A program made the position numbers and the translations under genes. Below are positions 11,446-27,464 of a stretch of DNA of 39,746 nt, piece by piece. The notes beneath the pieces are model-generated. The model was not told the origin of the DNA. It did not search any database and saw only the letters and a program-made list of their open reading frames with translations. This stretch comes from a virus: positions 1-39,746 of IMG/VR virus record IMGVR_UViG_3300042691_048607. One strand, 5' to 3'. Positions within the stretch are counted from its first letter, which is position 1, and each line of letters begins with the position of its first letter.

Positions 11446-11476
11446 GAGATATTTATTTTTGAATAAGAATTTAGAA

Positions 11477-14400
11477 ATGTCTAGAATAAAAAAAACTTCC
11501 CCACTACTTAATTTATCAAACTTTCAAACTTTTATAGTTGATAATAATCCCCTTTCTCAGTATTTTAAAATTTCCGAATTAGGAGATTTATTTACTGCGG
11601 GTAAAAATGGTTTTTTAATAGAGGGTTCTACATTTCTTAAACCATCTACTGAAATTAAAATTGAAGTATTAGATACCGAAGGTAATCCATTATTTGTTGA
11701 ACCAGGTGAAGGTATTCCAGAATATTATGAAGGGTTATCCAAATTAATTGGTGTATATGTTTACGAAGATACTCCAATTGGAATTGGTAAAATTACAATT
11801 TTAGGGGAATTAGATACGTGGTTAGATGAAAATGGATTTCCACAACCTATACCTGAAGATTGGGCTGGAATTTATAACGTTAAATGGGAGAGAGATATTA
11901 AAATTAATAAAAATATCCCCAACGAAACTAGAGTTAGGTTTGTAAGAAGACCTGAGGTAATTATTGAAGAATTAAATGAAAGTTTTTATTCTAGAAATTT
12001 AGTAAATGCAACTCAAACAGATGGATTAGTAAGAGGTATTGCTTTAACTCCAACAGAAGGAACTACTTTAAGAGGATATAGGGGTGGTATAAGATACTTA
12101 GTACAAAAACAAAGTGGTGGATTTTTTGATGGTGGAAATTTTATTTCAGTAACAGGAACAGGAATTCAAAACGCGGAAATAGTTGAATATCTTAATAGTA
12201 GCTCAGTTGTTGTAGCAACACCATTTACTTCATCAGATGGATTGGTTTCGAATTTTAGTGGTAAAAATTATTCATTATCATATCAGTATAATCAGAATCC
12301 AGTTGCATCATCAATATTAGGTTCGTTTGGTAGATTTGAAATTAATCAACTCCAAACTTTTGTAGGAGATGTAGAGAGAATAAAAGTATTTAAAAAATCA
12401 AGAGCATCGAATGTTGACTATGAAGTAATTCAGGATACTAGAGTTGAATCATCTGAAATACTCACTGCAATAGTTTCTGGTTCAGCGATTGATGTTGGTC
12501 ATTTTAGTGCATCTTATGAAAACGGTCAAAGTTGGAATTCATTTTGGACTACACAAAGTAATGCGGGGGATATATTAGATTCTTCAAAAATTTATAGAGC
12601 AGTAAAACTTAGAAATAATAGATTATCAACTAATTTAGGAGATGATATTAGATTAGAAAGTGGTAGTGAGTATGCATTAGAGTTTTACAACTATTACGAT
12701 ACTTCTTCAAATAATCCAAATGATAAATTAAATGTTTACCTAACAAGTACTCTACGAAGTGGAAGTGGTATTTCAAATTATTATCTAACACAAAGTTTAG
12801 CAGTCTTAACTGGTTCAAATGAATTTAGAAGTGCAAATAAAAGAGTATATAATTTTGTACCCCCTATAACTGATAATTGGGCAATAAATTTTGAATCATC
12901 TAATACAACTTCTAATTCATATTGGCATGTTGGAAGTGTTAGTTTAAAAGCTGCGCATGAATTAGGGTTTTCACCTGATGAATTCAATTTTATAATTCCT
13001 ATTGATAGAGATTTAGAAAGGGAAACTTTTGATTTTAAATTTGAGTTTTTCGATATTAATAACAATTATGTTCCAATTACGGTAACAAGTGCAAAAACAT
13101 TTCAAAGTGGTAATATTGGATTAATTGATAAAAATATAATAATCGACACCGATAAACAATTTTTTAATTTTTCATCATCACTAGAAGGTTCTCCCATAGA
13201 TCAAACAATTAATATTACCGGAACTAAAAACCGAATATTAGGAAATCTCTTAATTACATCACAGGCATTTGATACCGGAGGAATCGAAATACCTGCAGCA
13301 ACATATTCAAATGCAGGATACTCTTATCCAGGTGCATTATCAAATTATAACGAAGATATATATAGTTTGTCCGCATCTTTAAGTATTGCAAGTTTTACAG
13401 GCTCGCTTCATACATCTTCATTAGTTGATAGAATAACATATACATTAACGGAAGTTGAATCGGTTCAGCCATTTATTAAAAGATTTACAATTAATAGATT
13501 AGTAGCAGGAGCAAGTGGTGTAAATGGAGATGATGCAAGAATCTTGACTGTTTCTGCAAATACAAACCAATTTATTTATGAACCAACTGGGCCAGGATTA
13601 AAACCATCTGGTCAAATTATTCTTATAGATGTAAGAAAGCAAAATTTAGTTTCCGGTTCTTTAACCGTAAATTCTGGATCTGGAGTTCCTGCACTTACTT
13701 TATTATCTTCTGATGTAAATGGTGTAACTACATTTAGATTAAATGGAAGTGCATATTCACACTCATTAGGTGAAAGGATTTATGCGTTTACTGGTTCGGA
13801 TGAATTCTTAAATACTTATTCTGATTCAGTTAAAATTACACCCGTACTAAATTTTGATGGTATATCGGTTGTATTAACAAATGAATCATCAACCTTTCCT
13901 GCAAAATCAACTGGAGATATAATTCAAACCTCAGATTTAGCATTAGGTAGTGGTAGTGTAATAATGACAATTAATTCTGCATCTATTGCATATACTGCTA
14001 GTGCCCAATTAGGAGCTAATAGATTTACAATACTAAGCCAAACTGCTAGTGGAGTTACTGCAAATGCAATCTCATCAACATCGGCGAGTTATTCTATAAG
14101 TGGATTTCCAAACACCGCTGATTCTGGTTCATTGGAATTGGCAATACGATATAAAGCGGGTGATAATTCTACAACTGCTGATTTTAGAAAATTTGTAACA
14201 TATACTAAGGCAAAAAAAGCTGCTCCGGTATTAGAATTTATAATCGGAAATAATAATCAATCAACTGATGCAAAATCGACCGGTGAACAAATTGGTGCAT
14301 TTGCAAATTCTTCTTTGGTAGTAAAAGAACAATATAATGGAAGTGCTACTTTTTTAAATTTAGCGGGAGCTCCAACAATCAATAGTAGTTCTGCTTTTAC

Positions 14401-17047
14401 TACTATAACTAAAACCGCAACTTTACTTACCTATCCAACAATGGCAAGTGGGACTGATTCAGTTGAATTATCAGTTACGGGATCAGTAGTTGATTCAGAG
14501 GGAGTTAGTAGAACTGTTTTTGGAAATGTATCTTTAACAAAATTAAAAAAAGCGGCACCCGTTTTGGAATTTGTAATAAGCAATAATAATCAATCAGCTG
14601 ATGCAAAATCAACTGGAGTACAATTAACTTCGTTTAGTGACTCAACGCTTTCAGTAAGAGAAATATATAATGGTTCAACTTCTAACTTAACATTATCAGC
14701 TGCCCCAACAATTAATAGTAGTTCTGCTTTTACTACTATTACAAAAAGTGCAACTTTATTATCATATCCTTCAATGGCGAGTGGAACAAACTCGGTAGAA
14801 TTATTTGTGACTGGTTCAGTAACTGATAGTGAAGGAAGTAGTAGAATAGTATATGGAGGAGTTTCACTTACAAAAGTTAAAAAGGCCGCACCATCTGTTA
14901 TCCTTACTGCAACTCCTCAAACACAAACTGTTGCAGCAACATCTGCAAGTGTCCAAACAGGAAATCTTAATACAGTTGCCTTAGATGCATTAGAAGGAAC
15001 TACATCAGTATTTAATTCGGCATCCATATTGCTGAGTAATTTTACCGGTGGAAGTATTTCAACAAAGACATTAACATTAGGTACAATACCGAATGGTGTA
15101 CCGGCTGCATCTGCGAGTATAGGAATAAATTATACTGATACTGAAGGAACGATAACCAGTAAAACAATTAATGTATCGGCTGTTAAAGCATTGGCGGGAG
15201 CTAGTGGTTCGCAGGGAGATCCTGGTACAAATGGAACAAATGGATTGAGAACTGCTACGGGAATGGTGCATTATCAATTAACATCAACATCCGCTCCATC
15301 TAACCCAACCGCAACATCATATACATTTAGTAATGGAACATTTAGTGGATTAACTGCGAATTGGGGGACAGGTGCACCTACTTACGCGAGTGGTAATACT
15401 AACAAATATTGGTATTCATTTTTTACCGCTGTTGAAACATCTCCTGGATCTGGAGTTGGTAATGTAACTTTTGGTAACTCAACTCAAGCAATTGGTTTTA
15501 GTGGGTTAGTATCATTTACAGGAGCGAATGGGGTAAGTGATGGTTCTAATGCTCTTACTTTTGGGGTAGCTGGTACAACATTGATTAATGGTAGTAATAT
15601 ATCAACTGGAAGGATTACTTCAACGAATATATCTTTACCAGCTGGATTTAATTACGCTAATGGAAAATATGTAAATGCGGGGACTTTAATAAACTTAGAT
15701 AGTGGAAGTATTCATACTAAAAACTTTTTTATAAGTTCTAGTGGTGATGCGGAATTTAAAGGTAGATTAAGTGCGGTAGGCGGAACTTTTACCGGTGAGT
15801 TAGTGGCAGCGAGTGGATATTTTAGTGGTTCTATTGCGGCAACAGATGGTTATATTGGAAATTGGGTTTTGACTGGGCCAACACTATACGCTAGTGCAAA
15901 TAATAGAAAAGCTCAATTATCAGCAGTAATTCCCTCAATGGAATTTTATAGTGGAAGTAGTTTGGTTGTAGATATAAACGCTAATACTTCATTATCTCCA
16001 AAAACAGCTGCAACTATTACTCCATCTCCAACTTCTGCAAATCAAAGTACGGCTTTATCAAATCAAACCTATGCAGCGGTAGCAGGTACTGAATACTACT
16101 ATTCATCGGCAGAATTTTTAAGTGGAAATACTTCAACATTTTCAATAGGAGCAGGAAGTGCATTAATAGGTAAAACTTGCGCATTAAATGCAACTGTAGG
16201 AGGGGCGACTGGAAATAGCTTTGGTGCTTCCGGTGATGATGTTGTTCCTCCTAATAATTTATTATACCAAAGATTTAGTTTTAGTTATGGATTTAGAGTT
16301 ACTGGGCCTGGTGGACTTTCTCAAGATATTACAACTGCGTATGATGGGAGTACGGTTAGGGGTGGTATAGGGCCATACACTATAAGTCAAACATATACTT
16401 CCCAAACTTTATCAACTACGTTTGTTTTGGCTCAAGGTACATACACTATAACTCCAATTTTAACTGGCATATATGCGGGAGCTGTTATGCAAATAGCAGC
16501 TCCACCGGCTCTTTTTTCATTAAATATGACCAGTCCATCTTTAAGTTCTATTGAAGCCGCGATTCCTGTATCAAAAACTGAATTAGCTGCTGGAGGTATG
16601 CAGGTTGTATTTAGTAGTACAAGATTTATAGAAGTTCAAAGAGCTAACAACTCAGATTTCGTAAGTATTGGAGGTGGATTAACTTGTACAGGAGATGTTA
16701 CTGCAAATACTTCGGATAGGAGATTAAAAGAGGATATAAGAATTATAGATAGTCCATTAGAAAAAATAGAAAATATACGAGGTGTATTTTTTAAATGGAC
16801 AAATGAAGCTAAGAAAAAAACTGGAAATGAAACTGATGAGGAACAAGTTGGATTTATAGCACAAGAAGTTAGAGATGTATTACCTCATATTGTAAAACCT
16901 GCGCCATTTGATAAAGATATGTCGACTGGAAAATCAATAAGTGGGGAAAATTATTTGACAATCCAATATGAAAAAATAGTTCCGCTGTTATTAGAAGGGA
17001 TAAAAGAATTGAAAAAAGAAATAGACGAATTAAAAAAGAATAGGTAA
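11477..17047 (+). CDS. Giant tail fibre with S74 intramolecular chaperone
   Basis: ATG 11477 gives 1856 aa ([16 protein letters not shown]...); an in-frame TTG at 11459 would add six residues and is less likely. The N-terminal ~500 residues should attach to the virion. The middle contains Ig-like/beta repeats, including two nearly equal 111-aa tandem copies starting KKAAPVLEF, flanked by more diverged copies, then a short collagen-like [13 protein letters not shown] stretch. Near residues ~1450-1480 come the [10 protein letters not shown] and GDAEFKGRL motifs typical of fibre shafts. The C-terminal ~110 residues are a peptidase S74/endosialidase chaperone: [11 protein letters not shown] with the self-cleavage Ser at residue 1746, [13 protein letters not shown], and a closing coiled coil ([17 protein letters not shown]). 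The chaperone trimerises the fibre and then cuts itself off. TAATG couples it to the next gene. Confidence 0.93.
14213..14878 (+). repeat. Two in-frame 333-bp tandem repeats inside the fibre gene
   Basis: Copy 1 spans 14213-14545 and copy 2 spans 14546-14878, each exactly 111 codons and each beginning Lys-Lys-Ala-Ala-Pro. They share long identical stretches, for example the [14 protein letters not shown] segment. A further start of the motif (KKAAPSV) follows at 14879, and a diverged unit precedes at about 13840. Each unit is probably one beta-sandwich domain. Copy number can change by recombination, altering fibre length. Confidence 0.9.
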
Positions 17048-18369
17048 TGCCGATACCATCATCAGGAGCGATTAAAATGTCTGAAATACGAGATGCGTTG
17101 GGTTTAACTCCAGCATCTCCATCTGGTACGTCATTAAGAGAATATAATAGATTAGCAAAAATAGCAACTGGGTTAGCAAAATTTGATACTCCTGATGTAA
17201 TGTCGGATTTTTATAATTATTCAGGAGCACCAAGTCCTACTCCGAGTCCGACTCCTGCGCCAACTCCTACTCCGAGTCCGACTCCAAGCCCAACGCCATC
17301 ACCCACACCTGCGCCAACTCCAACTCCGAGTCCAACTCCGAGTCCAACTCCGAGTCCAACACCATCACCTACACCTGCACCAACTTATGCAGCGATAACT
17401 GTGACAAATGGAACGGTGACTTGTCTTGGTGGAAAGAGTTATTGGACAACTACTTGGAGTGGAGGTACTGGAAATATGAGTTGGATAGCAATAGGAACTT
17501 CTGAATCAAACGCAATTAGTGCAGTGAATGGTATAACTGGAACTAGAGTTAATATAGGTGGAGAACCAAATTATGCTTGGGGGCCAGTTGATAATGGTGA
17601 TTGGTGGGTAGCTGTTAAAGATAGTGCTGGAAATATCGGTATTAGTACAAAATTAACTCTCGCTTGTGTAGCTCCAACACCTGCACCGACACCTTCGCCT
17701 ACTCCATCACCGACACCATCTCCTACACCGGCTCCAACACCATCTCCTACGCCGGCTCCAACATACGCTGCAATTTCAGTTATTAATGGGGAACCTGATT
17801 GTATTGGTGGTTCAAACTATTGGACAACTACTTGGAGTGGAGGTACGGGAAATATGTCATTTATTGCTTTAGGTACATCTGAATCAAACGCTATTCAGAT
17901 AGTAAATGGATCTTTACCTGGAAGAATTAGTATAGGCGGTGAGCCAAATTATTCGTGGGGCCCTGTTGCAAACGGAGATTATTGGGTGGCAGTTAGAGAT
18001 AGCGCGGGTAATGTTGGATTGAGTTCTAAACTAACATTAAGTTGTGTGGCTCCAACTCCATCGCCGACACCATCACCGACACCATCACCTACGCCGGCTC
18101 CTTCTACAAATACATTCTTAGTGGCCATTTCAAATGACCTGAATAGTATATGTAGTGTATTAACAACTAGAAGTGTAAGAGCTGAAAACAATGCGGATAA
18201 TTTAGTAGATGCTGATGGATATGTGTTATATAGAATGCCTCAAAACATTGCATTGACGGGGTATAATTATGTAATGCAAATTGATAGTGGTCAAAGTCCA
18301 ATAACTAGTATATATAATTTAAATAGTGGAACTGGTGCTGTAAATGGTACTACTGGACAATTCTGTTAA
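17047..18369 (+). CDS. Pro-Thr-Pro-Ser-rich tail adhesin
   Basis: A 440-aa protein starting in a TAATG junction with the fibre gene. Residues 1-~60 ([35 protein letters not shown]) match the N-terminal module often seen on phage tail-fibre/adhesin proteins. Then come a 52-codon [10 protein letters not shown]-type linker, a 96-aa domain, a 30-codon linker, a second 96-aa copy of the domain (both with [27 protein letters not shown] and two flanking Cys), a short third linker and a distinct ~90-aa C-terminal domain. The linkers are extended, Pro/Thr/Ser-only rods like plant extensins or bacterial PT boxes. The gene directly after it encodes a prolyl-hydroxylase-like enzyme, which suggests the linkers are modified. 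Virion location is inferred from the N-terminal module and its neighbour. Confidence 0.78.
17230..18102 (+). repeat. Three Pro-Thr/Ser tracts alternating with a duplicated 288-bp domain
   Basis: Proline-rich tracts lie at 17230-17385, 17674-17763 and 18052-18102, built of CCN-ACN-CCN-(AGT/TCN) codons. Between them are two domain copies of exactly 288 bp each, 17386-17673 and 17764-18051, whose products are closely similar. The wobble bases vary within the tracts, so the coding repeat is conserved better than the DNA repeat. This fits protein-level selection for the rod plus occasional unequal exchange. Confidence 0.88.
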
Positions 18370-18382
18370 AAAACAAAGATTT

Positions 18383-19561
18383 ATGTTAATAAGAACAATT
18401 GATAATTTTTTGAGTGAAGAAGAGTGTTATCATATAATATCACTGATTGATAAAGAGAACCAAAAAAGTACGGTCGTTGGTTATGGTGATACCCCTAGTA
18501 TAGTAAGTGATTCTAGAACAAGTAGTACATCTAATCTATGTAATTGTGATAAATTAGTTTCTTCAATTAGAGATAGAATCGCGGCTGAACTGAAAATTGA
18601 TACAATGAATATGGAGCCATTGCAGGGGCAGATGTATAACGTCGGTCAGTATTTTAGAAAACACTATGATTACTTTAATGATAGTGATAGCAATCATATA
18701 GGAATAGCTGGAAATAGAGCTTGGACATTTATGATTTATTTAAATGATAATTTTAAAGGGGGTACTACTAATTTTCCAAATTTAGATTTAGAATTCACAC
18801 CAAAAAGAGGTATGGCAGTGATTTGGCAAAATATGGATAAAAAGGGTAAGTTATATGAAGATTCATTGCACGAAGGAACTGATGTCATTGAAGGTACAAA
18901 ATATATTATAACTGCTTGGATAAGAGAAAAAAGTATAATACCTAATGGTGAAATTAAAAAAAGCCAGTACGTTTTTAAAAATTTTAAAGATTTACATACT
19001 TTTACATCTAATGGATTTTCAAAAATTAAAATTCCACAAAAAAGTTGGGAAATAATACAGGAGATGTATAATAAAGTAAAGGAAAATAAAATACAAGAAA
19101 TATTTGAAGGAAAGGATAATATAATACCTTCGGATAATGAATCAAATTCATCCGATATTCTTTCAGTAGAAGCAGTTCCTGAATTAAAAAGATTATTGCA
19201 CAATGAATTATTAGATATTCATAAAGAATGGGCGGGTGCAAATATTGAACCTTCATTTATTTATGGAATAAGAAGTTATAATAAAGGAGCAAGATTATCA
19301 TTTCATAGGGATAGAATAGAGACACACCACATATCATCAATTGTGTGTGTAGATAAAGAACTGAAAGGTTCGGAAGATTGGGCACTAGATATACAAGGGC
19401 ATGATGGTGAATGGTATAAAGTTTACTTAAATCCAGGTGAAATGGTATTATATGAATCCGCAAAATGTGAGCATGGTAGGGGGGATGCATTTCAAGGAGA
19501 GTATTATAGAAATATGTTTGTACACTATAAGTTATTAGATTATGAGTTTTCAAATAGATAA
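18383..19561 (+). CDS. Tandem 2OG-Fe(II) oxygenase, prolyl 4-hydroxylase-like
   Basis: I favour ATG 18383 (392 aa, MLIRTIDNFLSEEEC...), because the family normally starts just before IDNFLS; an in-frame ATG at 18344 would overlap the adhesin gene by 26 nt. The first domain is P4Hc-like: NVGQYFRKHYDYF gives His94-x-Asp96, RAWTFMIYLND and FKGGTTNF follow, and SLHEGTD...GTKY gives distal His163 and the 2-oxoglutarate-binding Lys173. A second jelly-roll oxygenase domain fills the C-terminal part: FHRDR gives His308-x-Asp310, and CEHGRGD and YYRNM give His364 and Arg376. Both metal triads look intact. The first domain would hydroxylate peptidyl proline; the neighbouring PTPS-rich adhesin is the obvious candidate substrate. 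The second domain's substrate is unknown. Confidence 0.85.
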   Translation: MLIRTIDNFLSEEECYHIISLIDKENQKSTVVGYGDTPSIVSDSRTSSTSNLCNCDKLVSSIRDRIAAELKIDTMNMEPLQGQMYNVGQYFRKHYDYFNDSDSNHIGIAGNRAWTFMIYLNDNFKGGTTNFPNLDLEFTPKRGMAVIWQNMDKKGKLYEDSLHEGTDVIEGTKYIITAWIREKSIIPNGEIKKSQYVFKNFKDLHTFTSNGFSKIKIPQKSWEIIQEMYNKVKENKIQEIFEGKDNIIPSDNESNSSDILSVEAVPELKRLLHNELLDIHKEWAGANIEPSFIYGIRSYNKGARLSFHRDRIETHHISSIVCVDKELKGSEDWALDIQGHDGEWYKVYLNPGEMVLYESAKCEHGRGDAFQGEYYRNMFVHYKLLDYEFSNR

Positions 19562-20207
19562 TACTACTAGATTAATAGCCTTTGGTGATAGTTGGACAGC
19601 TGGACATGGAGTTGAGTTAGATATTCATTGTAAAGAAGTAATTTCTCCTAATTCATTTATAGATAATTTAAGAATTAGCAATGGTTGGCCTAAACATTTA
19701 GCAAATTTATTTAATATTCCTTTCGTAAATTTTGGTTGGTGTAATTTTTCAAATTTAGATATACTTCAAAAAATAAAAGAAAATAAAAATTATTTTGAAA
19801 AAAATGATTTAATAATTGTTATGTTAAGTTTTCCATATAGAGGAGAATCAATCCCTAAAAGAGATATTGGTGAAATTATAGGTTTATTAGAAGGATATAA
19901 TTACTTTTTAATAAATTCATTTTCTAAAAGTTTTTCAAACGAATTAGATGAGGATTTATCAGAATTAAAACTTGATAGATTTCTAGCAAAAGATTTAACA
20001 ATGAAAGATATTCTTATTGAATATGAAAAAGAATTCAATCAATCCGTATGGGAATATAATTTTAGATTTCCTTATGTGTGGCAATCTACTGATTATGGGG
20101 ATACTCATCCGAATCATAATGGATACAAAATTATAGCTAAAAAAATTTACGAACTAATATCAGAATATGATAACAATACCTGTAGCCGCACCAACAAACT
20201 TATTTAA
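19542..20207 (+). CDS. SGNH/GDSL hydrolase-like protein
   Basis: A 221-aa protein overlapping the oxygenase gene by 20 nt. LIAFGDSWTAGHG carries the block I nucleophile Ser17, and YGDTHPNHNGY near the C-terminus carries Asp187 and His189 (block V DxxHxNxxG-like). Between them, FVNFGWCNFSN is consistent with the Gly block and LIIVMLSFPYRGE with the strand leading to block III. An esterase or deacetylase acting on glycans is the usual role in such neighbourhoods. It sits between the hydroxylase and two glycosyltransferases, so it may edit the glycan they build; that is inference. Confidence 0.72.
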   Translation: MSFQIDNTTRLIAFGDSWTAGHGVELDIHCKEVISPNSFIDNLRISNGWPKHLANLFNIPFVNFGWCNFSNLDILQKIKENKNYFEKNDLIIVMLSFPYRGESIPKRDIGEIIGLLEGYNYFLINSFSKSFSNELDEDLSELKLDRFLAKDLTMKDILIEYEKEFNQSVWEYNFRFPYVWQSTDYGDTHPNHNGYKIIAKKIYELISEYDNNTCSRTNKLI

Positions 20208-21000
20208 GTGGCAAACAAGTCTTTTTCAATTTGCTCAACAATGGGTATATGGTGATGTAAAATCTTTTTATGAATCATTAATATTAATTGTTGATAGAAA
20301 TGATCATAAATTTGTAGTTAAGGAAATAGATTGGAATTTAAGAATCCCATATAAAATAGTAAGAGGAATTCATTCAATTTTAGATGAATCTGAAAACCAT
20401 CCGCATTTTGCAGCTGGTAACTTATTTTTTGCACTTAAATCGGTAATAGATAGATTTTATGATAATGAAGTAATTTGTATATTAGATGCAGATATTATTC
20501 CATTAAGAAGATATGATGGTGTATTGCCAGAAGAGAATACTGTAATAACTTGTAATTTTTATGAAGATTGGCATATAAGATGTAGTAGACCTGATAAAGA
20601 AAATTATAGAATAGTTGAACCATTTTTAAAGCATGATATTCATCAATTTATGGATGGTGGATTTGTTCCAATTTTAATAAGAGTAAAGACTTTAAAAAAG
20701 ATTTTGGATGAAGTATTGGATTTAAGTTTAGAAATAGTAAGAAAGCATTTAGGTACTCCTTTTGGATGGTGGATGCAAATGTGGGCATTTCAAATTGCGT
20801 GTCATAATAATCAAATAAAATGTTTAGGGCAAGATAATACTTATTTTCCACATCAAAACGAATTGGATTTAAGTAAACATTTTTTTGCACATTACTCATG
20901 TGATACAAAATTTAAAAAAGGAACTTTTCCTAATCATAACATAGAAGAATTTCCTGATAATGTATTTTATAACCTTTTAAGAGAATGGTATCATAGATGA
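20167..21000 (+). CDS. Glycosyltransferase, resembles HPAT/SERGT hydroxyproline-arabinosyl or Ser-galactosyl transferases
   Basis: A 277-aa protein with a GT-A-like metal motif ILDADII (Asp107-x-Asp109). From memory, the order of motifs resembles plant hydroxyproline O-arabinosyltransferases (GT95) and peptidyl-serine galactosyltransferases (GT96): an N-terminal FKWQTSLFQF, the DxD strand, a FxEPxK-like NFYEDWHI segment, then FGWWMQMWAFQIACH (from 199; plant FGWVLEMYA) and AHYSCDTKFKKG (His242; plant HYTYGCD...KG). Those enzymes modify extensin-like Hyp/Ser repeats. The gene lies two genes after a prolyl-hydroxylase-like enzyme and three after a PTPS-rich protein, which fits. The general glycosyltransferase call is good; the subfamily is a hypothesis. 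Start overlaps the SGNH gene by 41 nt. Confidence 0.6.
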   Translation: MITIPVAAPTNLFKWQTSLFQFAQQWVYGDVKSFYESLILIVDRNDHKFVVKEIDWNLRIPYKIVRGIHSILDESENHPHFAAGNLFFALKSVIDRFYDNEVICILDADIIPLRRYDGVLPEENTVITCNFYEDWHIRCSRPDKENYRIVEPFLKHDIHQFMDGGFVPILIRVKTLKKILDEVLDLSLEIVRKHLGTPFGWWMQMWAFQIACHNNQIKCLGQDNTYFPHQNELDLSKHFFAHYSCDTKFKKGTFPNHNIEEFPDNVFYNLLREWYHR

Positions 21001-21797
21001 TTTACGTTTTTATAGCTTGTAGATTAGATAAGGAAATAATTCCAACTTGTTATGATTTGATTCAAAAAGCAGAAAATCCTAACGATATTAAAATTGTTGT
21101 ATTCAATCAGGATAGACAACAAGATATGTTTTTTCAGGATTTGTTTCCACCGCAAGTTACATTAGTAAATGTAGATTATAGAAAATTTTCTAATATTTGT
21201 TGGGTTAGGTCAATGGCTTCGTATTTTATTGAGCCATCATTTAAGTATTACTTATGCATTGATTCTCACATGAGATTTGACAAAAATTGGGACACTCAAC
21301 TTATTAATACATTAAAACCAAATTCAATTCTTTCAGCATATCCACCGGAATATCAATTGTATGGTGAATTTAAAAAAAGTTATGGGCACTACACCAATAA
21401 TTTTAATAAGGAAAAATTAGGATACTTTCCATTTGTAACTGTTCATTTTGCTGAATCAGATTTAGATTATAGAAAATCAACTATTGCAGCTGGGTTTCAT
21501 TTTACAACAATTGATTGGCTCTATAAGGTGGGGTATGATAAATTATTATGCTGGGGATTTGAAGAAATAGATTTGACGTATCGAAGTATCGAAGCGGGAT
21601 ATGAAATAATTAATTACAAGCAGACACCAATTTATCACCTATACGATAAAAGAGCTAGGAAACAAGAAGACCATGCTGAAAGATTTTTAATGGATTGTAA
21701 AGAGAGAATGCGTTCTAAAATTAATGATGAAACTAATAGGAAAATAAGTAATTATTATGATATAGATTTTGATGATTTTATTAAAAGATTTATATAA
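20997..21797 (+). CDS. GlcNAc-transferase family (GT60/Skp1 Gnt1-like) glycosyltransferase
   Basis: A 266-aa protein starting in an ATGA overlap. It has the family pattern I know for Glycosyltransferase (GlcNAc), Pfam GlcNAc/GT60: IYVFIACRLDKEIIPTC, DLIQKAENP, ICWVRSMA, YYLCIDSHMRF with the Asp89-Ser-His91 metal motif, NWDTQLI, ILSAYPPEY, then GFHF and CWGFEEIDLTYRSIEAGY and HLYDKRAR. The best-studied member, Dictyostelium Gnt1, transfers GlcNAc to a hydroxyproline of Skp1. Its presence beside a prolyl-4-hydroxylase-like gene therefore suggests the same two-step chemistry. Substrate assignment is inference; family assignment is strong. Length is that of a minimal catalytic domain. Confidence 0.78.
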   Translation: MIYVFIACRLDKEIIPTCYDLIQKAENPNDIKIVVFNQDRQQDMFFQDLFPPQVTLVNVDYRKFSNICWVRSMASYFIEPSFKYYLCIDSHMRFDKNWDTQLINTLKPNSILSAYPPEYQLYGEFKKSYGHYTNNFNKEKLGYFPFVTVHFAESDLDYRKSTIAAGFHFTTIDWLYKVGYDKLLCWGFEEIDLTYRSIEAGYEIINYKQTPIYHLYDKRARKQEDHAERFLMDCKERMRSKINDETNRKISNYYDIDFDDFIKRFI

Positions 21798-21805
21798 TTA
21801 TAGGT

Positions 21806-22801
21806 ATGATAATAATGGTTACAACTTCCGCTGGAAATCAAATAATAGGGGGCGGGGATATATGGGTAAATAATTTTATTAGAGAAGTTATACCAACTTT
21901 ATCAGAAGAAGTACACCTAATAATTGATAACAAACGAAGTTCAAATCATATCGAATCTTCTATATCAATCCCTCATACATTTCGATTAGAAAATCCAAAA
22001 AAGACAGAAGAGTTATTAGATAAATGTAGTAGAATAATATTCTTACACCCACCATATTCACATAGAGAGTATCTAATGGAATATCAAGATAAATGGGATA
22101 CTATTTTTATTCAAGCATACGCAAAGGATATAACCGATTCCGGTACTGATTTTAAAATGTACCCAACCAAAATTGAATTAAGTTGGCAAAATCTTTTATT
22201 GAGAAAATGCAAAAAAAGAGTTTGGATAGGATTGAACCATTCACCTCTATTAGATGATTTTGAATGTATATCTATACCGAACTATTATACATTTACTGAA
22301 GATAGAAAATTGATAGAAGAGTGTTCTGATACAATTGGATATGCAGCCCGTTTTGAATCTCGTAAAAACCCACATTGGTTATCAAATCATTCGGCTAAAG
22401 TTCTTACTCACAAATATGATTATTACAATATATCGGAAATGTATAACTTCAAAAGATGTAAGTTCTATGAATTTGATATGAATATACATCGTAATTGGTT
22501 TGTAGATAAAAGTTGGCAAATATTTCACGGAGCATATAAAAATGAACCATTTGGGTATTCAATATTTGATGCCGTAAATTATGGTAAGTTACCTATCTTA
22601 CATAAAGATTGGGGTGTAGAATGCAACTATGAATATAGGGTTAATAATAAGGAGGATTTTGATGATTTAGTAAATGAATTAATCAATACACCTTATGATA
22701 AAAAAGTAAAAGAATGTAACAAATTAAAACAATATTTGTTACAATTTGCAGATAAAAATAAATGGGTAGAAAAAGTTGGAAATCTTATAAATAATTTGTA
22801 A
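21806..22801 (+). CDS. GT-B-fold glycosyltransferase (group 1-like)
   Basis: A 331-aa protein. The N-terminal GGGDIWVNNFI resembles the glycine-rich loop of GT-B enzymes. The C-terminal half has IGYAARFESRKNPHWL (the usual start of the nucleotide-sugar domain) and NEPFGYSIFDAVNYGKLPIL, equivalent to the EPFGxxxxEAxAxGxPVV donor-binding motif of GT4-type glycosyltransferases. Donor and acceptor cannot be read. It starts 8 nt after the preceding gene and its last codons contain a TATAAATA octamer that may start the next transcript. Likely extends or adds a glycan in the modification pathway. Confidence 0.78.
   Translation: MIIMVTTSAGNQIIGGGDIWVNNFIREVIPTLSEEVHLIIDNKRSSNHIESSISIPHTFRLENPKKTEELLDKCSRIIFLHPPYSHREYLMEYQDKWDTIFIQAYAKDITDSGTDFKMYPTKIELSWQNLLLRKCKKRVWIGLNHSPLLDDFECISIPNYYTFTEDRKLIEECSDTIGYAARFESRKNPHWLSNHSAKVLTHKYDYYNISEMYNFKRCKFYEFDMNIHRNWFVDKSWQIFHGAYKNEPFGYSIFDAVNYGKLPILHKDWGVECNYEYRVNNKEDFDDLVNELINTPYDKKVKECNKLKQYLLQFADKNKWVEKVGNLINNL
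22786..22793 (+). promoter_or_regulatory. T4-type late promoter -10 element TATAAATA
   Basis: A second exact TATAAATA lies in the last codons of the preceding glycosyltransferase gene, 47 nt before ATG 22833. The distance is almost the same as at 11431 (46 nt), and this is the only other intergenic space of note (31 nt) in the right half of the window. It probably re-initiates late transcription of the remaining modification genes. Chance occurrence in AT-rich DNA is possible. Confidence 0.5.
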
Positions 22802-22832
22802 TTTTATAGATTAGAATAATTATATTCAATAG

Positions 22833-23588
22833 ATGTTACAAGACTTAAACTACATAAAAAAATACCTCACAAACAATTTAGAGTTTGATTATAGAGGTGA
22901 AGAGGAAACAAATCCTGTACCATATCGTTGGTCTCATGGAGCTACTGATACTCATTTAGGAGATGGATTAATTATCTACTCTCTGATTCAATATATGAGA
23001 GCCAAAGTGTGTGTATGTTTAGGTAGTGGTGGTGGGTTTATTCCCCGCATAATGACACAGGCTCGATACGATTTACATAAACAAAACATCTTCGAAGGAA
23101 ATCCTGATTTTAATTATGGTGATATTGGTTCAACTTATATAGTTGATGCTATGAATGGCATCGGAGGAGTTGTAGATTGGTTTGCAGAAGAATCCTTTTT
23201 CAGAAGAACATTTCATCCTAGAATCATAAATTCAACTACCGAAGAGGCGTTTTATGATTTCTTTGTATTGCAAGATATTAAAATAGATTATCTTCACATC
23301 GATGCCGGACATTCTTATGAAAATGTAAAAGAGGATTTTGATTTATATTCTCAGATAATGAGTGAGAATGGAATTATATCAATGCATGATACCGACCCAA
23401 AATATCATGATAAGTTTATTGTAACGCAAGAAGTTAAAGATAGAAATGAACATGATGATTGGAGTGGGCCTATACAATTGGCAAAAGAAATAGATTCTGA
23501 TAAATGGGAAGTGTTTAATCTTTTTAATCATGGTATTGTGAAAAATAAACCATCTTCAACTGGATTAACTTTAATAAGAAGGAAATGA
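22833..23588 (+). CDS. Class I SAM-dependent methyltransferase
   Basis: A 251-aa protein of the Methyltransf_24/cephalosporin-hydroxylase-like group. VCVCLGSGGGFIP is the glycine-rich SAM-binding motif I, YIVDAM follows motif II, and DYLHIDAGHSYENVKEDF then GIISMHDTD is the characteristic post-motif pair with metal-binding Asp/His. Such enzymes methylate sugar hydroxyls or modify polysaccharide precursors. It is the first gene after the putative late promoter at 22786 and ends in an ATGA junction with an epimerase gene, consistent with sugar modification. Exact acceptor unknown. Confidence 0.8.
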   Translation: MLQDLNYIKKYLTNNLEFDYRGEEETNPVPYRWSHGATDTHLGDGLIIYSLIQYMRAKVCVCLGSGGGFIPRIMTQARYDLHKQNIFEGNPDFNYGDIGSTYIVDAMNGIGGVVDWFAEESFFRRTFHPRIINSTTEEAFYDFFVLQDIKIDYLHIDAGHSYENVKEDFDLYSQIMSENGIISMHDTDPKYHDKFIVTQEVKDRNEHDDWSGPIQLAKEIDSDKWEVFNLFNHGIVKNKPSSTGLTLIRRK

Positions 23589-24427
23589 AAATATTAGTTA
23601 CAGGTGGGTGTGGATTTATAGGGCATGCATTATGTAAGAGATTATTAGAGGAAGGGCATGAGGTTCATATAGTAGATAATCACTATATCGGAAGAGAAGC
23701 AAAAATAGCAGAAGGTGCTAAATTTGTTGGAGGTGATGTGAGAGCAATGGAAAATATAAGTGATAAACCTTATGATTGGATTTATCATTTAGCATCATTT
23801 AGTAGAGTTTGGCTATCATACGAGAATCAAAACTATACATTTTCAACTAATGTAGATGGTACAAAAAGTGTTTTAGAATATGCTAAAAGAAATGGGTGTA
23901 AAGTAATATTCGCAAGTTCATCATCTATTCACCATTCTATTTCACCATATTCAACATCAAAAAGAATGGGTGAAGAGTTATGCCGTTTTTATAGAGATGG
24001 ATTAGGAGTTGATATAACAATAGTAAGATTATATAATGTATATGGGCCAGGTGAATTAGTTGAATCACACATGGCAGCATTATTAGGAAGATGGAGAAAT
24101 CAAATAAATAATAATTTACCTATAACTTATCATAACTTAGGAACACATTTGAAACCATTTACACATATCGATGATACGATTATTGGTTTAATTAAACTTA
24201 TTAAAACAAAAGAGATAAATCGTAATGGGTGGGAATTGGGCAATGATATTTCTTATAGTGTGCATCAGGTCTATAAAATGTTTGAAGAAAGATTCCCAAA
24301 TATAAAAGTTGAAAAGATAGTAGATGTTTCGGGAGGATACTCGATTGTCAGAAGAAAAGATGATGAAGTTAGGAGATTAGGTTGGTTTCCGAAAGATAGA
24401 TTAAAGGAATATATAGATAGTTTATGA
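23585..24427 (+). CDS. NAD-dependent sugar-nucleotide epimerase/dehydratase (extended SDR)
   Basis: A 280-aa extended short-chain dehydrogenase. The Rossmann motif is GGCGFIG (residues 7-13), VDNHYIGRE fits nucleotide recognition, HLASFSRV replaces the usual HLAA, FASSSSI is the catalytic-Ser strand, and Tyr122-x3-Lys126 (YSTSK) is the catalytic pair. VRLYNVYGPGE and a C-terminal GYSIVRRKD follow the UDP-glucose 4-epimerase-like pattern. It would supply an unusual sugar nucleotide for the adjacent transferases. Coupled on both sides by ATGA overlaps. The sugar produced cannot be told from sequence. Confidence 0.85.
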   Translation: MKILVTGGCGFIGHALCKRLLEEGHEVHIVDNHYIGREAKIAEGAKFVGGDVRAMENISDKPYDWIYHLASFSRVWLSYENQNYTFSTNVDGTKSVLEYAKRNGCKVIFASSSSIHHSISPYSTSKRMGEELCRFYRDGLGVDITIVRLYNVYGPGELVESHMAALLGRWRNQINNNLPITYHNLGTHLKPFTHIDDTIIGLIKLIKTKEINRNGWELGNDISYSVHQVYKMFEERFPNIKVEKIVDVSGGYSIVRRKDDEVRRLGWFPKDRLKEYIDSL

Positions 24428-25275
24428 AACCTAAATTAGTTACAGTCACAGGGTATAGAACAAATACTTTGAGACAAATGTTATCACATTACAAAAAAGA
24501 TGTGAGTGAAATACATTTGGTTAATTACTATTCCACAAATGCGGATAATAAAAAATCATTTGAAGAGGCAAGAGAAATTGCAGAGGAATTTGGTTGTGTT
24601 TATCATGAAAGAAAAGAAAAAGTATTTAACTGGGAAGCGGTAACTGATTTCTATAATGAAATTAAATCCATTTATCCAAATGATTGGTGGATAGTATCAG
24701 ATGATGATGAATTGCAATTATATTGGGATGATATTGGTTCTATTATAGAAGAGTGTGAAGAAAATGGTTGGGAATTTGTAACTGGTGGATTTATAGATAA
24801 AATTGGTGAAGGGGGTGAATTTCCAATAGTAAATGGTGATACTGATTTATGGAAATCATTTCCTATTAGTTCATTTTTTAGATATCCTTTAAGTGGAGCG
24901 TGTCCAAATAAAGTTACTCTAATGAAAGGTAGAATTCATTTAACTCCTGGACAACATTATGCTTTGATTGAAGGGCAAACGACTTGGAAATGGCAAGGTT
25001 GGAATCACCCTTTAAGATATCCGGTAGAAAGGGGATTTACGCAGGTACATCACTTTAAATGGGATAGCACTTGTGCAGATAGAATAAGAGCAGTTGCAAA
25101 TGTAGGAGAACACTATTCGTTTTCAGATGAATATCGAAAGATGTATAAAGAAATCGCTAAAAATAGGTTTAAAATAAATTTAGAAGATTTTTCCGAATGG
25201 ACTTGGAAATCTGAAAAATCCTTTGTATCTTTCGGTAATTGGAATAAACTAACCAAACAAATAGTTTTAATATAA
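24424..25275 (+). CDS. Glycosyltransferase-like protein (GT2-type, DDD motif)
   Basis: A 283-aa protein. KLVTVTGYRTNTLRQMLSHY and IHLVNYYSTNADN resemble the first strands of GT-A family 2 transferases, and WWIVSDDDELQ supplies the acidic metal-binding triplet. PGQHYALIEG and VHHFKWD are like the conserved His motifs seen after the acceptor domain in related phage and bacterial transferases. It is shorter than processive GT2 enzymes and has no membrane segments, so a soluble single-sugar transferase acting in the cytoplasm is likely. It couples by TAATG to the first GT7-type gene. Confidence 0.68.
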   Translation: MKPKLVTVTGYRTNTLRQMLSHYKKDVSEIHLVNYYSTNADNKKSFEEAREIAEEFGCVYHERKEKVFNWEAVTDFYNEIKSIYPNDWWIVSDDDELQLYWDDIGSIIEECEENGWEFVTGGFIDKIGEGGEFPIVNGDTDLWKSFPISSFFRYPLSGACPNKVTLMKGRIHLTPGQHYALIEGQTTWKWQGWNHPLRYPVERGFTQVHHFKWDSTCADRIRAVANVGEHYSFSDEYRKMYKEIAKNRFKINLEDFSEWTWKSEKSFVSFGNWNKLTKQIVLI

Positions 25276-26765
25276 TGACAGGTGCTAAAATAGCAATAAT
25301 AGTTCCGTATAGAGATAGAAGGGAGCAGTTGGATACCTTCGTTCCACACATGACAGAATTCTTTAAGAATAAAGATGTGGATTACAAAATTTTTATAGTT
25401 GAACAGGCTGATGATAAACCATTTAATTATGGTAAGTTATGTAATATTGGATTCTCTTTATTCAAAGAAGGATTCGATTATTTCTGCTTTCATGATATTG
25501 ATATGTTGCCGGTAAGTGATGATTGTGATTACAATTATATTCACATTGGAGGTTATCCTGTACACATGGCTACTAAGGTATCTGCGCACACATTTAAACT
25601 CCCATATTTGGAATATTTTGGTGGAGTAGTAATGTTCTCTAAAGAAGATTTTGAAGCCGTTAATGGGTATTCTAATGAGTATTATGGATGGGGTTTTGCT
25701 GATTTAGATTTACTTCATAGATGTAGAATTAATGATATAGAGTTAGATGAAGAAATTGTTTTTCCTCGCATAGACTCGTATTATGAATTTGAGAAAATAA
25801 AAATAACCGATAAAAAGTATTCGGAAAGAGTAAAATACATAGATTTCAAAGATAATGATTTATACTTAAAAATATTTCCGAATAATCAGATAAAGGATTT
25901 AACAAAAGATAGTTTTAGTGTATCTCTTTGGTTTAGTAAAGATGAGATTGCTAAAGAAGAAGAATACTTAGTTAGTTGGCCTGGATTTAACACTGGTATA
26001 TCATTGCAAAATGATGGAACAATTAGAGTTAATGTTTATGATAATGATAGACAATACTGTTTTGCATACAAACGATATGAATTAGGAGTTTGGAATCATG
26101 TTGCAATGGTAGTTGATTACAATAAAGAGGTAGTTGAATTATATCTCAATAGTGTAAAAGTTCCATACACAGGCGACCAACAGCCATATATTGTTACACC
26201 GTTAATTGATTATAGTTATCAACCAATTTACATAGGATGTGCTAGTTTAAATTCATCTCCATATAAGGGTAAATTATCTAATCTTTTAATGTTTGATTAT
26301 GTTTTAGAACAAAGAGAAATTGATAATCTTTATTTAGAGGGCTATAATAATAAGAAACAAAATACCGATTTAGAGCCGGTTCTTAATATAAACTTCAATA
26401 AAATCTATCATGATTTTATATTAGATTCATCTTTGACAATGAATCATGTTAAGGTGCACTCTTTAGATTTTACCGAATACTCTAAATTCATAAAAGAAGC
26501 GGTTATTGAAAAAACATCAAAACTTTCAGTACCATCTAGAATTATGGGTAAATATCAATCACTTATCCACGATGATGATGATAAAATAACTGAAAAGTTT
26601 TATAGCTGGGATCCAGATATTGTTCAAAATTCTCAAATATACTTTGAAGAGGTTTTGACAGGAAAGGTGGATACTAAAAAGATAGGATTGAATTATTTAA
26701 ATTACAAAATTTTATCAGAAGACGAAATAAATGAAAATACAAAATGGATAAAGGTAGTTCTATAA
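25275..26765 (+). CDS. GT7-type galactosyltransferase with inserted LamG-like domain, copy 1
   Basis: A 496-aa protein. Residues 1-~170 follow the beta-1,4-galactosyltransferase (GT7) order: VPYRDRREQL, IFIVEQ, FNYGKLCNIGF, FHDIDMLP (metal DxD), YFGGVVMFSKEDFEAVNGYSN, WGFADLDLLHRC. A LamG-like jelly roll (~190-390; FSVSLWFS, GTIRVNVYD, WNHVAMVVDY, VELYLN, YIGCA) follows. Then the remaining GT7 segment resumes (~420-496): GKYQSLIH with His432 at the place of the metal-ligand His of animal enzymes, and GLNYLNYKIL near the end. The usual GEDDD is GFADLD here (Ala142, Leu144), so catalysis or acceptor choice may differ from the two later copies. Donor and acceptor unknown. Confidence 0.82.
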   Translation: MTGAKIAIIVPYRDRREQLDTFVPHMTEFFKNKDVDYKIFIVEQADDKPFNYGKLCNIGFSLFKEGFDYFCFHDIDMLPVSDDCDYNYIHIGGYPVHMATKVSAHTFKLPYLEYFGGVVMFSKEDFEAVNGYSNEYYGWGFADLDLLHRCRINDIELDEEIVFPRIDSYYEFEKIKITDKKYSERVKYIDFKDNDLYLKIFPNNQIKDLTKDSFSVSLWFSKDEIAKEEEYLVSWPGFNTGISLQNDGTIRVNVYDNDRQYCFAYKRYELGVWNHVAMVVDYNKEVVELYLNSVKVPYTGDQQPYIVTPLIDYSYQPIYIGCASLNSSPYKGKLSNLLMFDYVLEQREIDNLYLEGYNNKKQNTDLEPVLNINFNKIYHDFILDSSLTMNHVKVHSLDFTEYSKFIKEAVIEKTSKLSVPSRIMGKYQSLIHDDDDKITEKFYSWDPDIVQNSQIYFEEVLTGKVDTKKIGLNYLNYKILSEDEINENTKWIKVVL

Positions 26766-26989
26766 TAAAACAAATTATCAACAATGAAGAAATTGTTGAA
26801 AGGGCTGAAAAAATTGCAGACATATTAGAATCGTTTGAAGATAACAAGACGATTGATAATTTCTCATATATGATGCCTATTATATATTCTTCTTTGGAAT
26901 TAATGAGAGGATATTATGGGGGTACTCAATCACCTTTCCCAACAGGATTTTTCAAAAAAAGAACAGAAAATAAATTAAAAAACAAATAA
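26744..26989 (+). CDS. Small hypothetical protein
   Basis: An 81-aa protein whose ATG lies 22 nt inside the end of the GT7 copy 1 gene. It appears helical (IIKQIINNEEIVERAEKIADIL) with a basic C-terminus (FFKKRTENKLKNK). There is a moderately hydrophobic patch (YMMPIIYSSLELM) but not a clear membrane helix. It precedes two small paralogous genes. No family recognised. Position inside a tightly packed operon supports it as expressed. Confidence 0.55.
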   Translation: MDKGSSIIKQIINNEEIVERAEKIADILESFEDNKTIDNFSYMMPIIYSSLELMRGYYGGTQSPFPTGFFKKRTENKLKNK

Positions 26990-26990
26990 A

Positions 26991-27227
26991 ATGGCTACAT
27001 CAAAAAAACCCGAAACTTCAAATATTGATATTGAAGAAAGAGCAGTTAGAGCATTTGAAAAAATAGGTACATCGTTAGAAAACATTCAGGATTGGATGTA
27101 TGAGTTAGATACTAAAGGCTGGTCTGAAAGATTAGAATGGTATCTAAACGAATTCTATATGATTGCCAAAGCTAAAACCATTGGTAATACTGGAAGACCT
27201 GATAAATCAAATGAAAGACCTCAATAA
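26991..27227 (+). CDS. Small conserved protein, tandem paralogue A
   Basis: A 78-aa protein starting one base after its neighbour's stop (AAATAAAATG). It shares with the next protein the pattern ERAVRAFEKIGTSLENIQDW, then WxxRLEWYLNEFxxIxKAK and a C-terminal GRP...ERP tail. The helical WYLxEF core and disordered tail suggest a small adaptor or oligomeric protein. I recall similar small proteins near glycan genes in T4-like marine phages but know of no function. Probably arose by tandem duplication with 27234-27464. Confidence 0.65.
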   Translation: MATSKKPETSNIDIEERAVRAFEKIGTSLENIQDWMYELDTKGWSERLEWYLNEFYMIAKAKTIGNTGRPDKSNERPQ

Positions 27228-27233
27228 TAGATT

Positions 27234-27464
27234 ATGGCAGATCAAAAAACATTGGAAGAAAGACAAGTAAGGGCACTGGAAGATATAGCCTCTTCACTTA
27301 GAGATTTGAACGATTGGATGTTTGAAATCGATAAATCAGCTTGGGGTACAAGAGTAGAATGGTACTTACATGAATTCCACACAATTTTAAAAGCTAAAAA
27401 CTTAGGAAGTGTATCTCGACCTATGAGAGATTCTGAAAGACCTAATGATGAAAGACAACAATAA
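27234..27464 (+). CDS. Small conserved protein, tandem paralogue B
   Basis: A 76-aa protein, 6 nt after paralogue A. Shared positions include ER-VRA-E-I--SL---DWM-E-D and RVEWYLHEF--I-KAK-LG followed by RP and SERP. The end overlaps the GT7 copy 2 gene by 20 nt, so it is translated in the same operon. The pair sits exactly between GT7 copy 1 and copies 2-3, which hints that the duplication unit included these genes. Function unknown. Confidence 0.65.
   Translation: MADQKTLEERQVRALEDIASSLRDLNDWMFEIDKSAWGTRVEWYLHEFHTILKAKNLGSVSRPMRDSERPNDERQQ

What the first reader, a model, noticed from the sequence alone, without database searches (positions are those of the whole stretch)
17047..21797. Possible phage hydroxyproline O-glycosylation pathway acting on its own Pro-Thr-Pro-Ser adhesin
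Within 4.8 kb and one transcription unit lie a PTPS-rich tail protein, a prolyl-4-hydroxylase-like enzyme (intact HxD...H and Lys), an SGNH hydrolase, a transferase resembling plant HPAT/SERGT enzymes, and a GT60/Skp1-Gnt1-like GlcNAc transferase. In eukaryotes each of these transferase groups acts on hydroxyproline or on Ser in Ser-Hyp repeats made by a P4H. Their co-occurrence next to an extensin-like substrate suggests a complete hydroxylate-then-glycosylate system protecting or tuning a receptor-binding rod.
Basis: partly seen in the sequence, partly recalled or inferred. Interest (0 to 1): 0.86.

Follow-up and report, generated by a model that had tools for sequence, protein, structure and literature searches.

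The report
Phage hydroxylase–glycosyltransferase cassette for proline-rich tails
Many uncultured phages carry a plant-like pair of genes, a prolyl hydroxylase and a hydroxyproline-type sugar transferase, beside the gene for their own proline-rich tail protein, which suggests that they coat it with sugar in the way plants coat cell-wall proteins; this has apparently not been described in bacteria or their viruses.

Summary
A Pro-X tail protein (three tracts, 50 Pro), a prolyl-4-hydroxylase (P4H) gene, an SGNH hydrolase, a Pfam-HPAT transferase and a GT60/PF11397 transferase overlap at 17047–21797.

The core interpretation gains strong comparative support. 88 viral HPAT-like loci (39 clusters at 90% identity) have a P4H within 6 kb in 37/39 clusters and a Pro-X-tract gene in 33/39. 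None of 65 control loci has such a tract gene. All but one of the tract-less clusters lie in a separate deep HPAT clade. The tract proteins fall into seven groups unrelated outside the tracts. P4H domain 1 is closest to the algal P4H solved with (Ser-Pro)5. 11 of 85 tract proteins contain Ser/Thr-free Pro-Val runs, which could carry sugar only on hydroxyproline.

Weaker parts: GT60 often sits beside Pro-Thr tails with no 2OG gene, so it does not argue for hydroxyproline; SGNH is accessory; sugar, linkage and benefit are unknown.

Best reading: a phage cassette that hydroxylates and then glycosylates its own Pro-X tail rods; nothing biochemical is shown. Partly supported, high interest.

The parts
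17047..18369 (+). Putative substrate: 440-aa tail-associated protein with Pro-X tracts (X = Thr, Ser, Ala) between folded domains
   Evidence: lies directly after the fibre gene 11459-17047; the N-terminal ~48 aa are shared with L026 (79% identity)
17230..17385 (+). Pro-X tract 1 (26 Pro)
   Evidence: mixed synonymous codons
17674..17763 (+). Pro-X tract 2 (15 Pro)
18052..18105 (+). Pro-X tract 3 (9 Pro)
18344..19561 (+). Tandem 2OG-Fe(II) oxygenase, 405 aa; domain 1 = prolyl-4-hydroxylase
   Evidence: Pfam PF13640; PDB profile hits are all P4Hs, best E 2e-39; model domain 1 vs 3gze Z 25.6, rmsd 2.4, 185 aligned, 33% id; H107xD109, H176, K186 invariant
19001..19534 (+). Second 2OG domain of the same protein (approx. 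aa 220-397), H321xD323...H377 invariant
   Evidence: PHROG 2954, 76.6 bits; weak PF13661
19542..20207 (+). SGNH/GDSL hydrolase (accessory); fused to the HPAT-like domain in L006 and L007
   Evidence: Pfam PF00657; fusion
20167..21000 (+). HPAT-like GT-A glycosyltransferase, 277 aa, invariant D107xD109, G164G165, H242-Y243-S244
   Evidence: PF23452 47 bits; 19/23 relatives match PF23452 at E <= 0.01; alignment A4; model pLDDT 94.7, GT-A fold
20997..21797 (+). GT60/PF11397 (GlcNAc-type) glycosyltransferase
   Evidence: PF11397 75.4 bits
21806..22801 (+). Conserved neighbour of unknown family (no Pfam or PHROG hit), kept next to the cassette in L005, L006, L007, L026
11459..17047 (+). Large tail fibre protein; its C-terminus matches PHROG tail fibre / baseplate wedge initiator families

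Best explanation
The phage modifies its own Pro-X tail protein in two steps. First, domain 1 of the tandem 2OG enzyme hydroxylates prolines in the Pro-Thr/Ser/Ala tracts, which it binds as an extended polyproline helix. Then the HPAT-like GT-A enzyme puts a sugar from a UDP-sugar on the hydroxyproline, or less likely on a neighbouring Ser/Thr. GT60, SGNH, the methyltransferase and other downstream enzymes extend or decorate that glycan in some phages. Shown here: the genes, their conserved linkage, catalytic residues and folds. Inferred: the substrate, the order of steps and the attachment residue. Unknown: the sugar and the benefit to the virion (rigid, protease-resistant or altered adhesin are possibilities).
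For: (1) 37/39 HPAT-like clusters have a P4H within 6 kb and 33/39 a Pro-X-tract ORF; 0/65 control loci (1.09 Mb) have such an ORF. (2) A tree splits the HPAT-like proteins into clade A (35 phage rows incl. the window) and clade B (bacteria plus five tract-less phage rows) at 100/100 support; 33 of 34 clade-A clusters are tract-linked (Fisher p ~1e-25, related sequences). (3) Tract proteins fall into 7 groups with no similarity outside the tracts, so the tract, not a shared fibre, is the common factor. (4) In L006/L007 and L248/L249 the tandem P4H is replaced by a distant P4H while HPAT and tract gene stay. (5) P4H domain 1: closest solved structure is the algal P4H with (Ser-Pro)5, Z 25.6 against ~17 for PHD2 and EF-Tu P4H; residues equivalent to Glu127, Arg161, Trp243 (named in PMC5684110) are invariant as E91, R125, W192. 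(6) 11/85 linked tract proteins have Ser/Thr-free runs of Pro with Val/Ala/Ile/Leu against 0/94 unlinked ones. (7) HPAT is fused to a Cupin_8/JmjC oxygenase, to GT60 and to SGNH in relatives.
Against: No biochemical data. L252-L254/L258 have P4H+HPAT+GT60 but no Pro-X run in contigs up to 122 kb. L002 has HPAT and a Pro-Thr fibre but no PF13640 gene in 83 kb. Most Pro-Thr tails lack the cassette (0/92 loci with the local HPAT profile; 1/50 records by Pfam), so such tails do not need it. Tyr140 of the algal P4H, the conformational switch (PMC9676403), is Phe here (F104). Single-domain phage 2OG proteins without tracts also hit P4Hs in the PDB, so the P4H label alone is not specific. In chloroviruses hydroxyproline was sought in virions and, from the text seen, apparently not found (PMC7019647).
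Confidence: 0.68

Rival explanations
1. The transferases glycosylate Thr/Ser in the tracts directly (mucin-like), and the P4H only stiffens the chain or primes it; the sugar is not on hydroxyproline.
For: Thr and Ser fill two thirds of X positions. GT60 holds Thr/Ser-acting enzymes (PMC8724618) and 8/10 GT60+Pro-Thr records lack PF13640. GT95 is related to GT96, whose member SGT1 acts on Ser in extensin (PMC8012813).
Against: 37/39 HPAT-like clusters have a P4H within 6 kb; 11/85 linked tract proteins carry long Ser/Thr-free runs against 0/94 unlinked.
Confidence: 0.22
2. The enzymes act on something else (host surface glycan, another protein, DNA) and sit beside fibre genes because that region collects cargo genes.
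For: The window downstream of 21.8 kb is a long island of sugar, methyl and radical-SAM enzymes. L252-L254 lack tracts. Clade-B HPATs occur in bacteria, mostly without tract genes nearby.
Against: Order and linkage persist across seven unrelated tract scaffolds and different phage backbones; 0/65 control loci have tracts; the P4H is of the polyproline-binding type.
Confidence: 0.08
3. Only hydroxylation matters: the P4H rigidifies the polyproline rods and the HPAT-like gene is a decayed or unrelated enzyme.
For: Some tract loci carry P4H without HPAT in the sequence held (L028, L029, L199, L222, L223).
Against: HPAT-like catalytic residues are invariant across 23 relatives; the gene is kept even where the tandem P4H was replaced.
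Confidence: 0.02

Closest known systems
Plant/green-algal hydroxyproline O-arabinosylation of extensins (P4H + GT95 HPAT, related GT96 SGT1)
   Same: Algal-type P4H, a Pfam-HPAT transferase and a Pro-rich rod as apparent substrate
   Different: Phage-encoded; no membrane anchor seen (the GT domain starts at residue 1; plant enzymes are Golgi type II membrane proteins, PMC8012813); alternating Pro-X not Ser-Pro4; no UDP-Araf pathway identified; tandem 2OG enzyme; fusions with SGNH, GT60 and oxygenases
Skp1 prolyl hydroxylation/GlcNAc pathway of protists (PhyA + GT60 Gnt1)
   Same: P4H plus a GT60 enzyme, in a cytosolic setting
   Different: Skp1 is modified at one Pro; here tracts of dozens; GT60 is only occasional and also occurs with Pro-Thr tails lacking PF13640 genes
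Chlorovirus PBCV-1 prolyl 4-hydroxylase
   Same: Virus-encoded P4H reported to act on Pro-containing peptides (Eriksson 1999, cited in PMC7019647); solved structure 5c5t, Z 21.9
   Different: Algal virus; role unknown and hydroxyproline apparently not found in virions (PMC7019647)
T. cruzi / Dictyostelium mucin-type polypeptide alpha-GlcNAc transferases (GT60)
   Same: Same family; act on Thr/Ser of mucin-like stretches (PMC8724618, PMC6939170)
   Different: No hydroxylation step required

Membership tests
Prolyl 4-hydroxylase (algal/collagen type) | Fe ligands HxD...H and 2OG-binding Lys | tested here: met
   H107, D109, H176, K186 invariant in the alignment
Prolyl 4-hydroxylase (algal/collagen type) | Fold and sequence nearest to P4Hs rather than other 2OG enzymes | tested here: met
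   PDB profile hits are P4Hs only, best E 2e-39; 3gze Z 25.6, rmsd 2.4, 185 aligned vs PHD2 ~17
Prolyl 4-hydroxylase (algal/collagen type) | Substrate-positioning Glu127/Arg161 and Trp243 (residues named in PMC5684110) | tested here: met
   E91, R125, W192 invariant
Prolyl 4-hydroxylase (algal/collagen type) | Switch tyrosine Tyr140 (PMC9676403) | tested here: not met
   invariant Phe (F104) in the phage alignment; so the claim is 'P4H-like, works like a P4H', not certified membership
Prolyl 4-hydroxylase (algal/collagen type) | 4-hydroxylation of prolyl peptides | not testable with these tools
   needs assay
HPAT (PF23452; GT95) | Match above Pfam's curated cut-off | tested here: met
   47 bits vs 23.9 for the window; 19/23 relatives match at E <= 0.01; control genomes 0/14
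HPAT (PF23452; GT95) | GT-A fold with DxD | tested here: met
   D107xD109 invariant; model pLDDT 94.7; LgtC Z 15.2, rmsd 3.8, 233 aligned; glycogenin 14.9
HPAT (PF23452; GT95) | Placement inside GT95 as against GT96 in a tree with plant sequences | not testable with these tools
   no plant sequences on hand; no solved HPAT in the PDB sequence search
HPAT (PF23452; GT95) | Transfer of L-arabinofuranose to hydroxyproline | not testable with these tools
   needs assay
GT60 (PF11397) | Pfam GlcNAc match above cut-off | tested here: met
   75.4 bits vs 21
GT60, Skp1-Gnt1 type | Acceptor is hydroxyproline | tested here: inconclusive
   8/10 GT60+Pro-Thr records have no PF13640 gene, so Thr/Ser acceptors are as likely
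Hydroxyproline O-glycosylation system | P4H, hydroxyproline transferase and Pro-rich substrate encoded together | tested here: met
Hydroxyproline O-glycosylation system | Glycosylated hydroxyproline present in the product | not testable with these tools
   needs mass spectrometry

The most novel reading that the evidence does not exclude
Phages encode a working hydroxyproline O-glycosylation system, the first outside eukaryotes, that turns their own Pro-X tail proteins into extensin- or arabinogalactan-like glycosylated rods; this is one of the missing roles of the abundant viral P4H genes, and related bacterial proteins (HPAT fused to an oxygenase or to GT60) point to a wider prokaryotic chemistry.
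Probability: 0.55. Interest if true: 0.9.

Novelty: new variant of a known kind. Interest (0 to 1): 0.82.

Why it matters
P4H genes were among the most widespread auxiliary genes of Baltic Sea viruses, and their use was called cryptic (PMC9301287). This cassette offers a concrete, testable substrate and a second step. If true it moves a plant hallmark modification into prokaryotic viruses, adds a new way to build glycosylated tail rods, and provides soluble single-domain HPAT-like enzymes that may express well in bacteria, for a family with no solved structure found in the PDB sequence search.

Tried and rejected
P4H label by PDB hit alone: rejected as proof, since tract-less single-domain phage 2OG proteins also hit P4Hs, and phages with such genes (S-SCSM1, Mel-JY01, Erwinia Y3, Sen-NF) show no tract within about 6-8 kb. 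Pro-Val DNA pattern as a reverse probe: mostly out of frame; the 8 in-frame loci have no cassette, so Pro-Val runs alone are not diagnostic. GT60 as a hydroxyproline marker: rejected. SGNH as core: rejected; 48 SGNH loci have no tract gene. No HPAT relative by tblastn in the 50,697 phage records, so no laboratory phage was found. HPAT/GT95 had no PDB sequence match, and no HPAT structure was listed among the fold matches, which does not exclude one. Promoter and terminator scans were at chance level. The library searches found no paper describing a phage or bacterial HPAT; the library is partial. Bacterial distribution of PF23452 could not be surveyed (tool handle limits).
Full report
WHAT IS THERE. 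The window is an IMG/VR virus record. Genes 17047-18369, 18344-19561, 19542-20207, 20167-21000 and 20997-21797 are on the + strand and overlap one another. The first follows a large fibre gene by a one-base overlap; that fibre's C-terminus matches tail-fibre and baseplate families. The 440-aa protein has three Pro-X tracts with 50 Pro, X being Thr, Ser or Ala apart from one Ile elsewhere. Shuffled residues never give even four such units in a row (0/200). Codons inside the tracts are mixed, and Ser comes from both codon families, so the protein sequence, not a DNA repeat, is kept. Pfam assigns 2OG-FeII_Oxy_3, Lipase_GDSL, HPAT and GlcNAc above their cut-offs.

The hydroxylase is two 2OG domains in tandem. 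In 20 relatives, H107/D109/H176/K186 of domain 1 and H321/D323/H377 of domain 2 are invariant. PHROG 61 covers the first half and PHROG 2954, labelled 'ferrochelatase', the second; that label looks wrong.

DOMAIN 1 IS A P4H OF THE POLYPROLINE-BINDING TYPE. The alignment's profile finds only prolyl hydroxylases in the PDB (B. anthracis E 2e-39, Chlamydomonas 3e-27, PBCV-1 6e-25). The model (pLDDT 86.9) is nearest to 3gze, the algal enzyme with (Ser-Pro)5: Z 25.6, rmsd 2.4, 185 residues, 33% identity; PHD2 and the EF-Tu hydroxylase lie near Z 17. Glu127 and Arg161, which position the substrate, and active-site Trp243 (PMC5684110) correspond to invariant E91, R125 and W192; Tyr140 (PMC9676403) is Phe (alignment; residue mapping read by hand). 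Control: a tract-less phage 2OG protein also hits P4Hs in the PDB, so the label alone proves little.

THE HPAT-LIKE ENZYME. 23 relatives share D107xD109, GG164-165 and HYS242-244; 19 of 23 match Pfam HPAT at E <= 0.01 and no other family is widely matched. The model (pLDDT 94.7) is a GT-A fold close to LgtC (Z 15.2, rmsd 3.8, 233 aligned) and glycogenin (Z 14.9). These are retaining enzymes, and so, from general knowledge, is HPAT. A shared fold does not show function. Placement within GT95 could not be tested for want of plant sequences.

THE LINKAGE TEST. Scans of IMG/VR with the HPAT-like, P4H and SGNH alignments gave 88 HPAT-like rows in 39 clusters at 90% identity. A Pro-X-tract ORF (30-aa window, at least 10 Pro, at least 26 of P/T/S/A/V) lies within 6 kb in 33 clusters, often the very next gene; a P4H lies within 6 kb in 37. 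Controls: 0/17 loci with single-domain 2OG genes and 0/48 with related SGNH genes have such an ORF. By whole record, Pfam HPAT occurs in 0/50 controls, and a Pro-X DNA pattern in 3/50. Sequences are related and the controls are other kinds of phage, so p-values (about 1e-21 to 1e-25) are only descriptive.

WHY IT IS NOT JUST SHARED ANCESTRY OF ONE FIBRE. With tracts masked, representative tract proteins fall into seven groups with no detectable similarity. The gene order also differs: in L018 the order is tract gene, P4H, NAD-sugar epimerase/dehydratase, unknown, HPAT, second tract gene; in L003 the tract gene follows HPAT. In L006/L007 and L248/L249 the hydroxylase is a distant P4H, yet HPAT and tract gene remain.

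THE EXCEPTIONS ARE INFORMATIVE. The HPAT tree splits at 100/100 into clade A (35 phage rows, the window included) and clade B (six bacterial rows plus L031, L274, L275, L278, L281). Five of the six tract-less clusters are clade B; the sixth is L252-L254/L258 (P4H+HPAT+GT60, no Pro-X run in contigs up to 122 kb). The tract link thus belongs to clade A: 33 of 34 clusters. Several rows of clade B have long branches, so its inner order is unsure. Clade B includes HPAT fused to a Cupin_8/JmjC-type oxygenase (L284; L288 and L289 are of similar length), to FkbM-GT60 (L283) and to a methyltransferase (L281). Fusion of HPAT with an oxygenase and with GT60 independently couples these activities.

HYDROXYPROLINE OR SER/THR? 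Between prolines the linked tracts have T 53%, V 22%, S 13%, A 6%; unlinked Pro-Thr tracts have V 2%. 11 of 85 linked proteins contain at least 16 residues of Pro alternating with Val/Ala/Ile/Leu without Ser/Thr; 0 of 94 unlinked ones do. The unlinked set was picked by a Pro-Thr/Ser pattern, so this comparison leans my way. Such runs could be glycosylated only through hydroxyproline, but neither these runs nor the Pro-Thr ones are shown to be modified at all.

GT60. GT60-family genes are in 10/50 records with Pro-Thr tails and 2/50 controls (p 0.03), and 8 of those 10 have no 2OG-FeII_Oxy_3 gene. So phage GT60 goes with Pro-Thr tails, but not with hydroxylation; direct Thr/Ser glycosylation is equally likely there. 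GT60 includes both a hydroxyproline-specific enzyme (PMC6939170) and Thr/Ser enzymes (PMC8724618).

REVERSE DIRECTION. Among 92 IMG/VR loci with in-frame (P[TS])6, 5 have a P4H-like and 8 a GT60-like gene against 0 and 0 of 120 background loci. L199 and L222 pair a tract gene with a P4H and other sugar genes but no HPAT. Most Pro-Thr tails have none of these; the cassette predicts a tract, not the reverse.

CONCLUSION. The most economical reading is a phage cassette that hydroxylates and then glycosylates Pro-X rods of its own tail. Chain of steps: genes and linkage shown; P4H fold and residues shown; substrate inferred from linkage; attachment residue inferred; sugar and benefit unknown. Viral P4H is abundant and of 'cryptic' use (PMC9301287); in chloroviruses its role is unknown (PMC7019647). 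I found no paper on a phage or bacterial HPAT in the library searched, which is partial.

Noticed in passing
window 21806-39462: A long same-strand island follows: methyltransferase, two sugar epimerases, three GT7-LamG fusions (25275, 27445, 28884), two radical-SAM proteins (30320, 32375), further LamG-like ORFs. It may build the glycan or modify other virion proteins.
   Followed up: partly
window 35440-35973: Unassigned ORF that by eye has an HFD...H pattern of a 2OG oxygenase; not tested.
   Followed up: no
L284:9968-11929, L288/L289:9980-11929: Gammaproteobacterial MAG proteins of about 650 aa; in L284 the HPAT-like domain is fused to a Cupin_8/JmjC-type oxygenase.
   Followed up: partly
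L283:3405-5798, L287:7106-8812: Planctomycetaceae MAG proteins that fuse GT60 and HPAT-like domains (with FkbM methyltransferase in L283); the L287 contig also has a Pro-Thr protein.
   Followed up: partly
L208, L188, L129, L167: GT60-family genes within about 3 kb of Pro-Thr tail genes in large phages; these records have no 2OG-FeII_Oxy_3 gene: a possible separate, mucin-like tail glycosylation.
   Followed up: partly
L423 (Synechococcus phage S-SCSM1, 100204-110301): An isolated cyanophage interleaves four 2OG oxygenase genes with an annotated protein O-fucosyltransferase and GDP-fucose synthesis genes, a culturable place to test hydroxylation plus glycosylation.
   Followed up: no
window 18344-19561; PHROG 2954 and 3531: PHROG families named 'ferrochelatase' match the second 2OG domain; the name is probably a misannotation.
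   Followed up: no
L006:9383-10837, L007:9383-10840: SGNH hydrolase and HPAT-like transferase fused in one protein, hinting that SGNH edits the same glycan.
   Followed up: no
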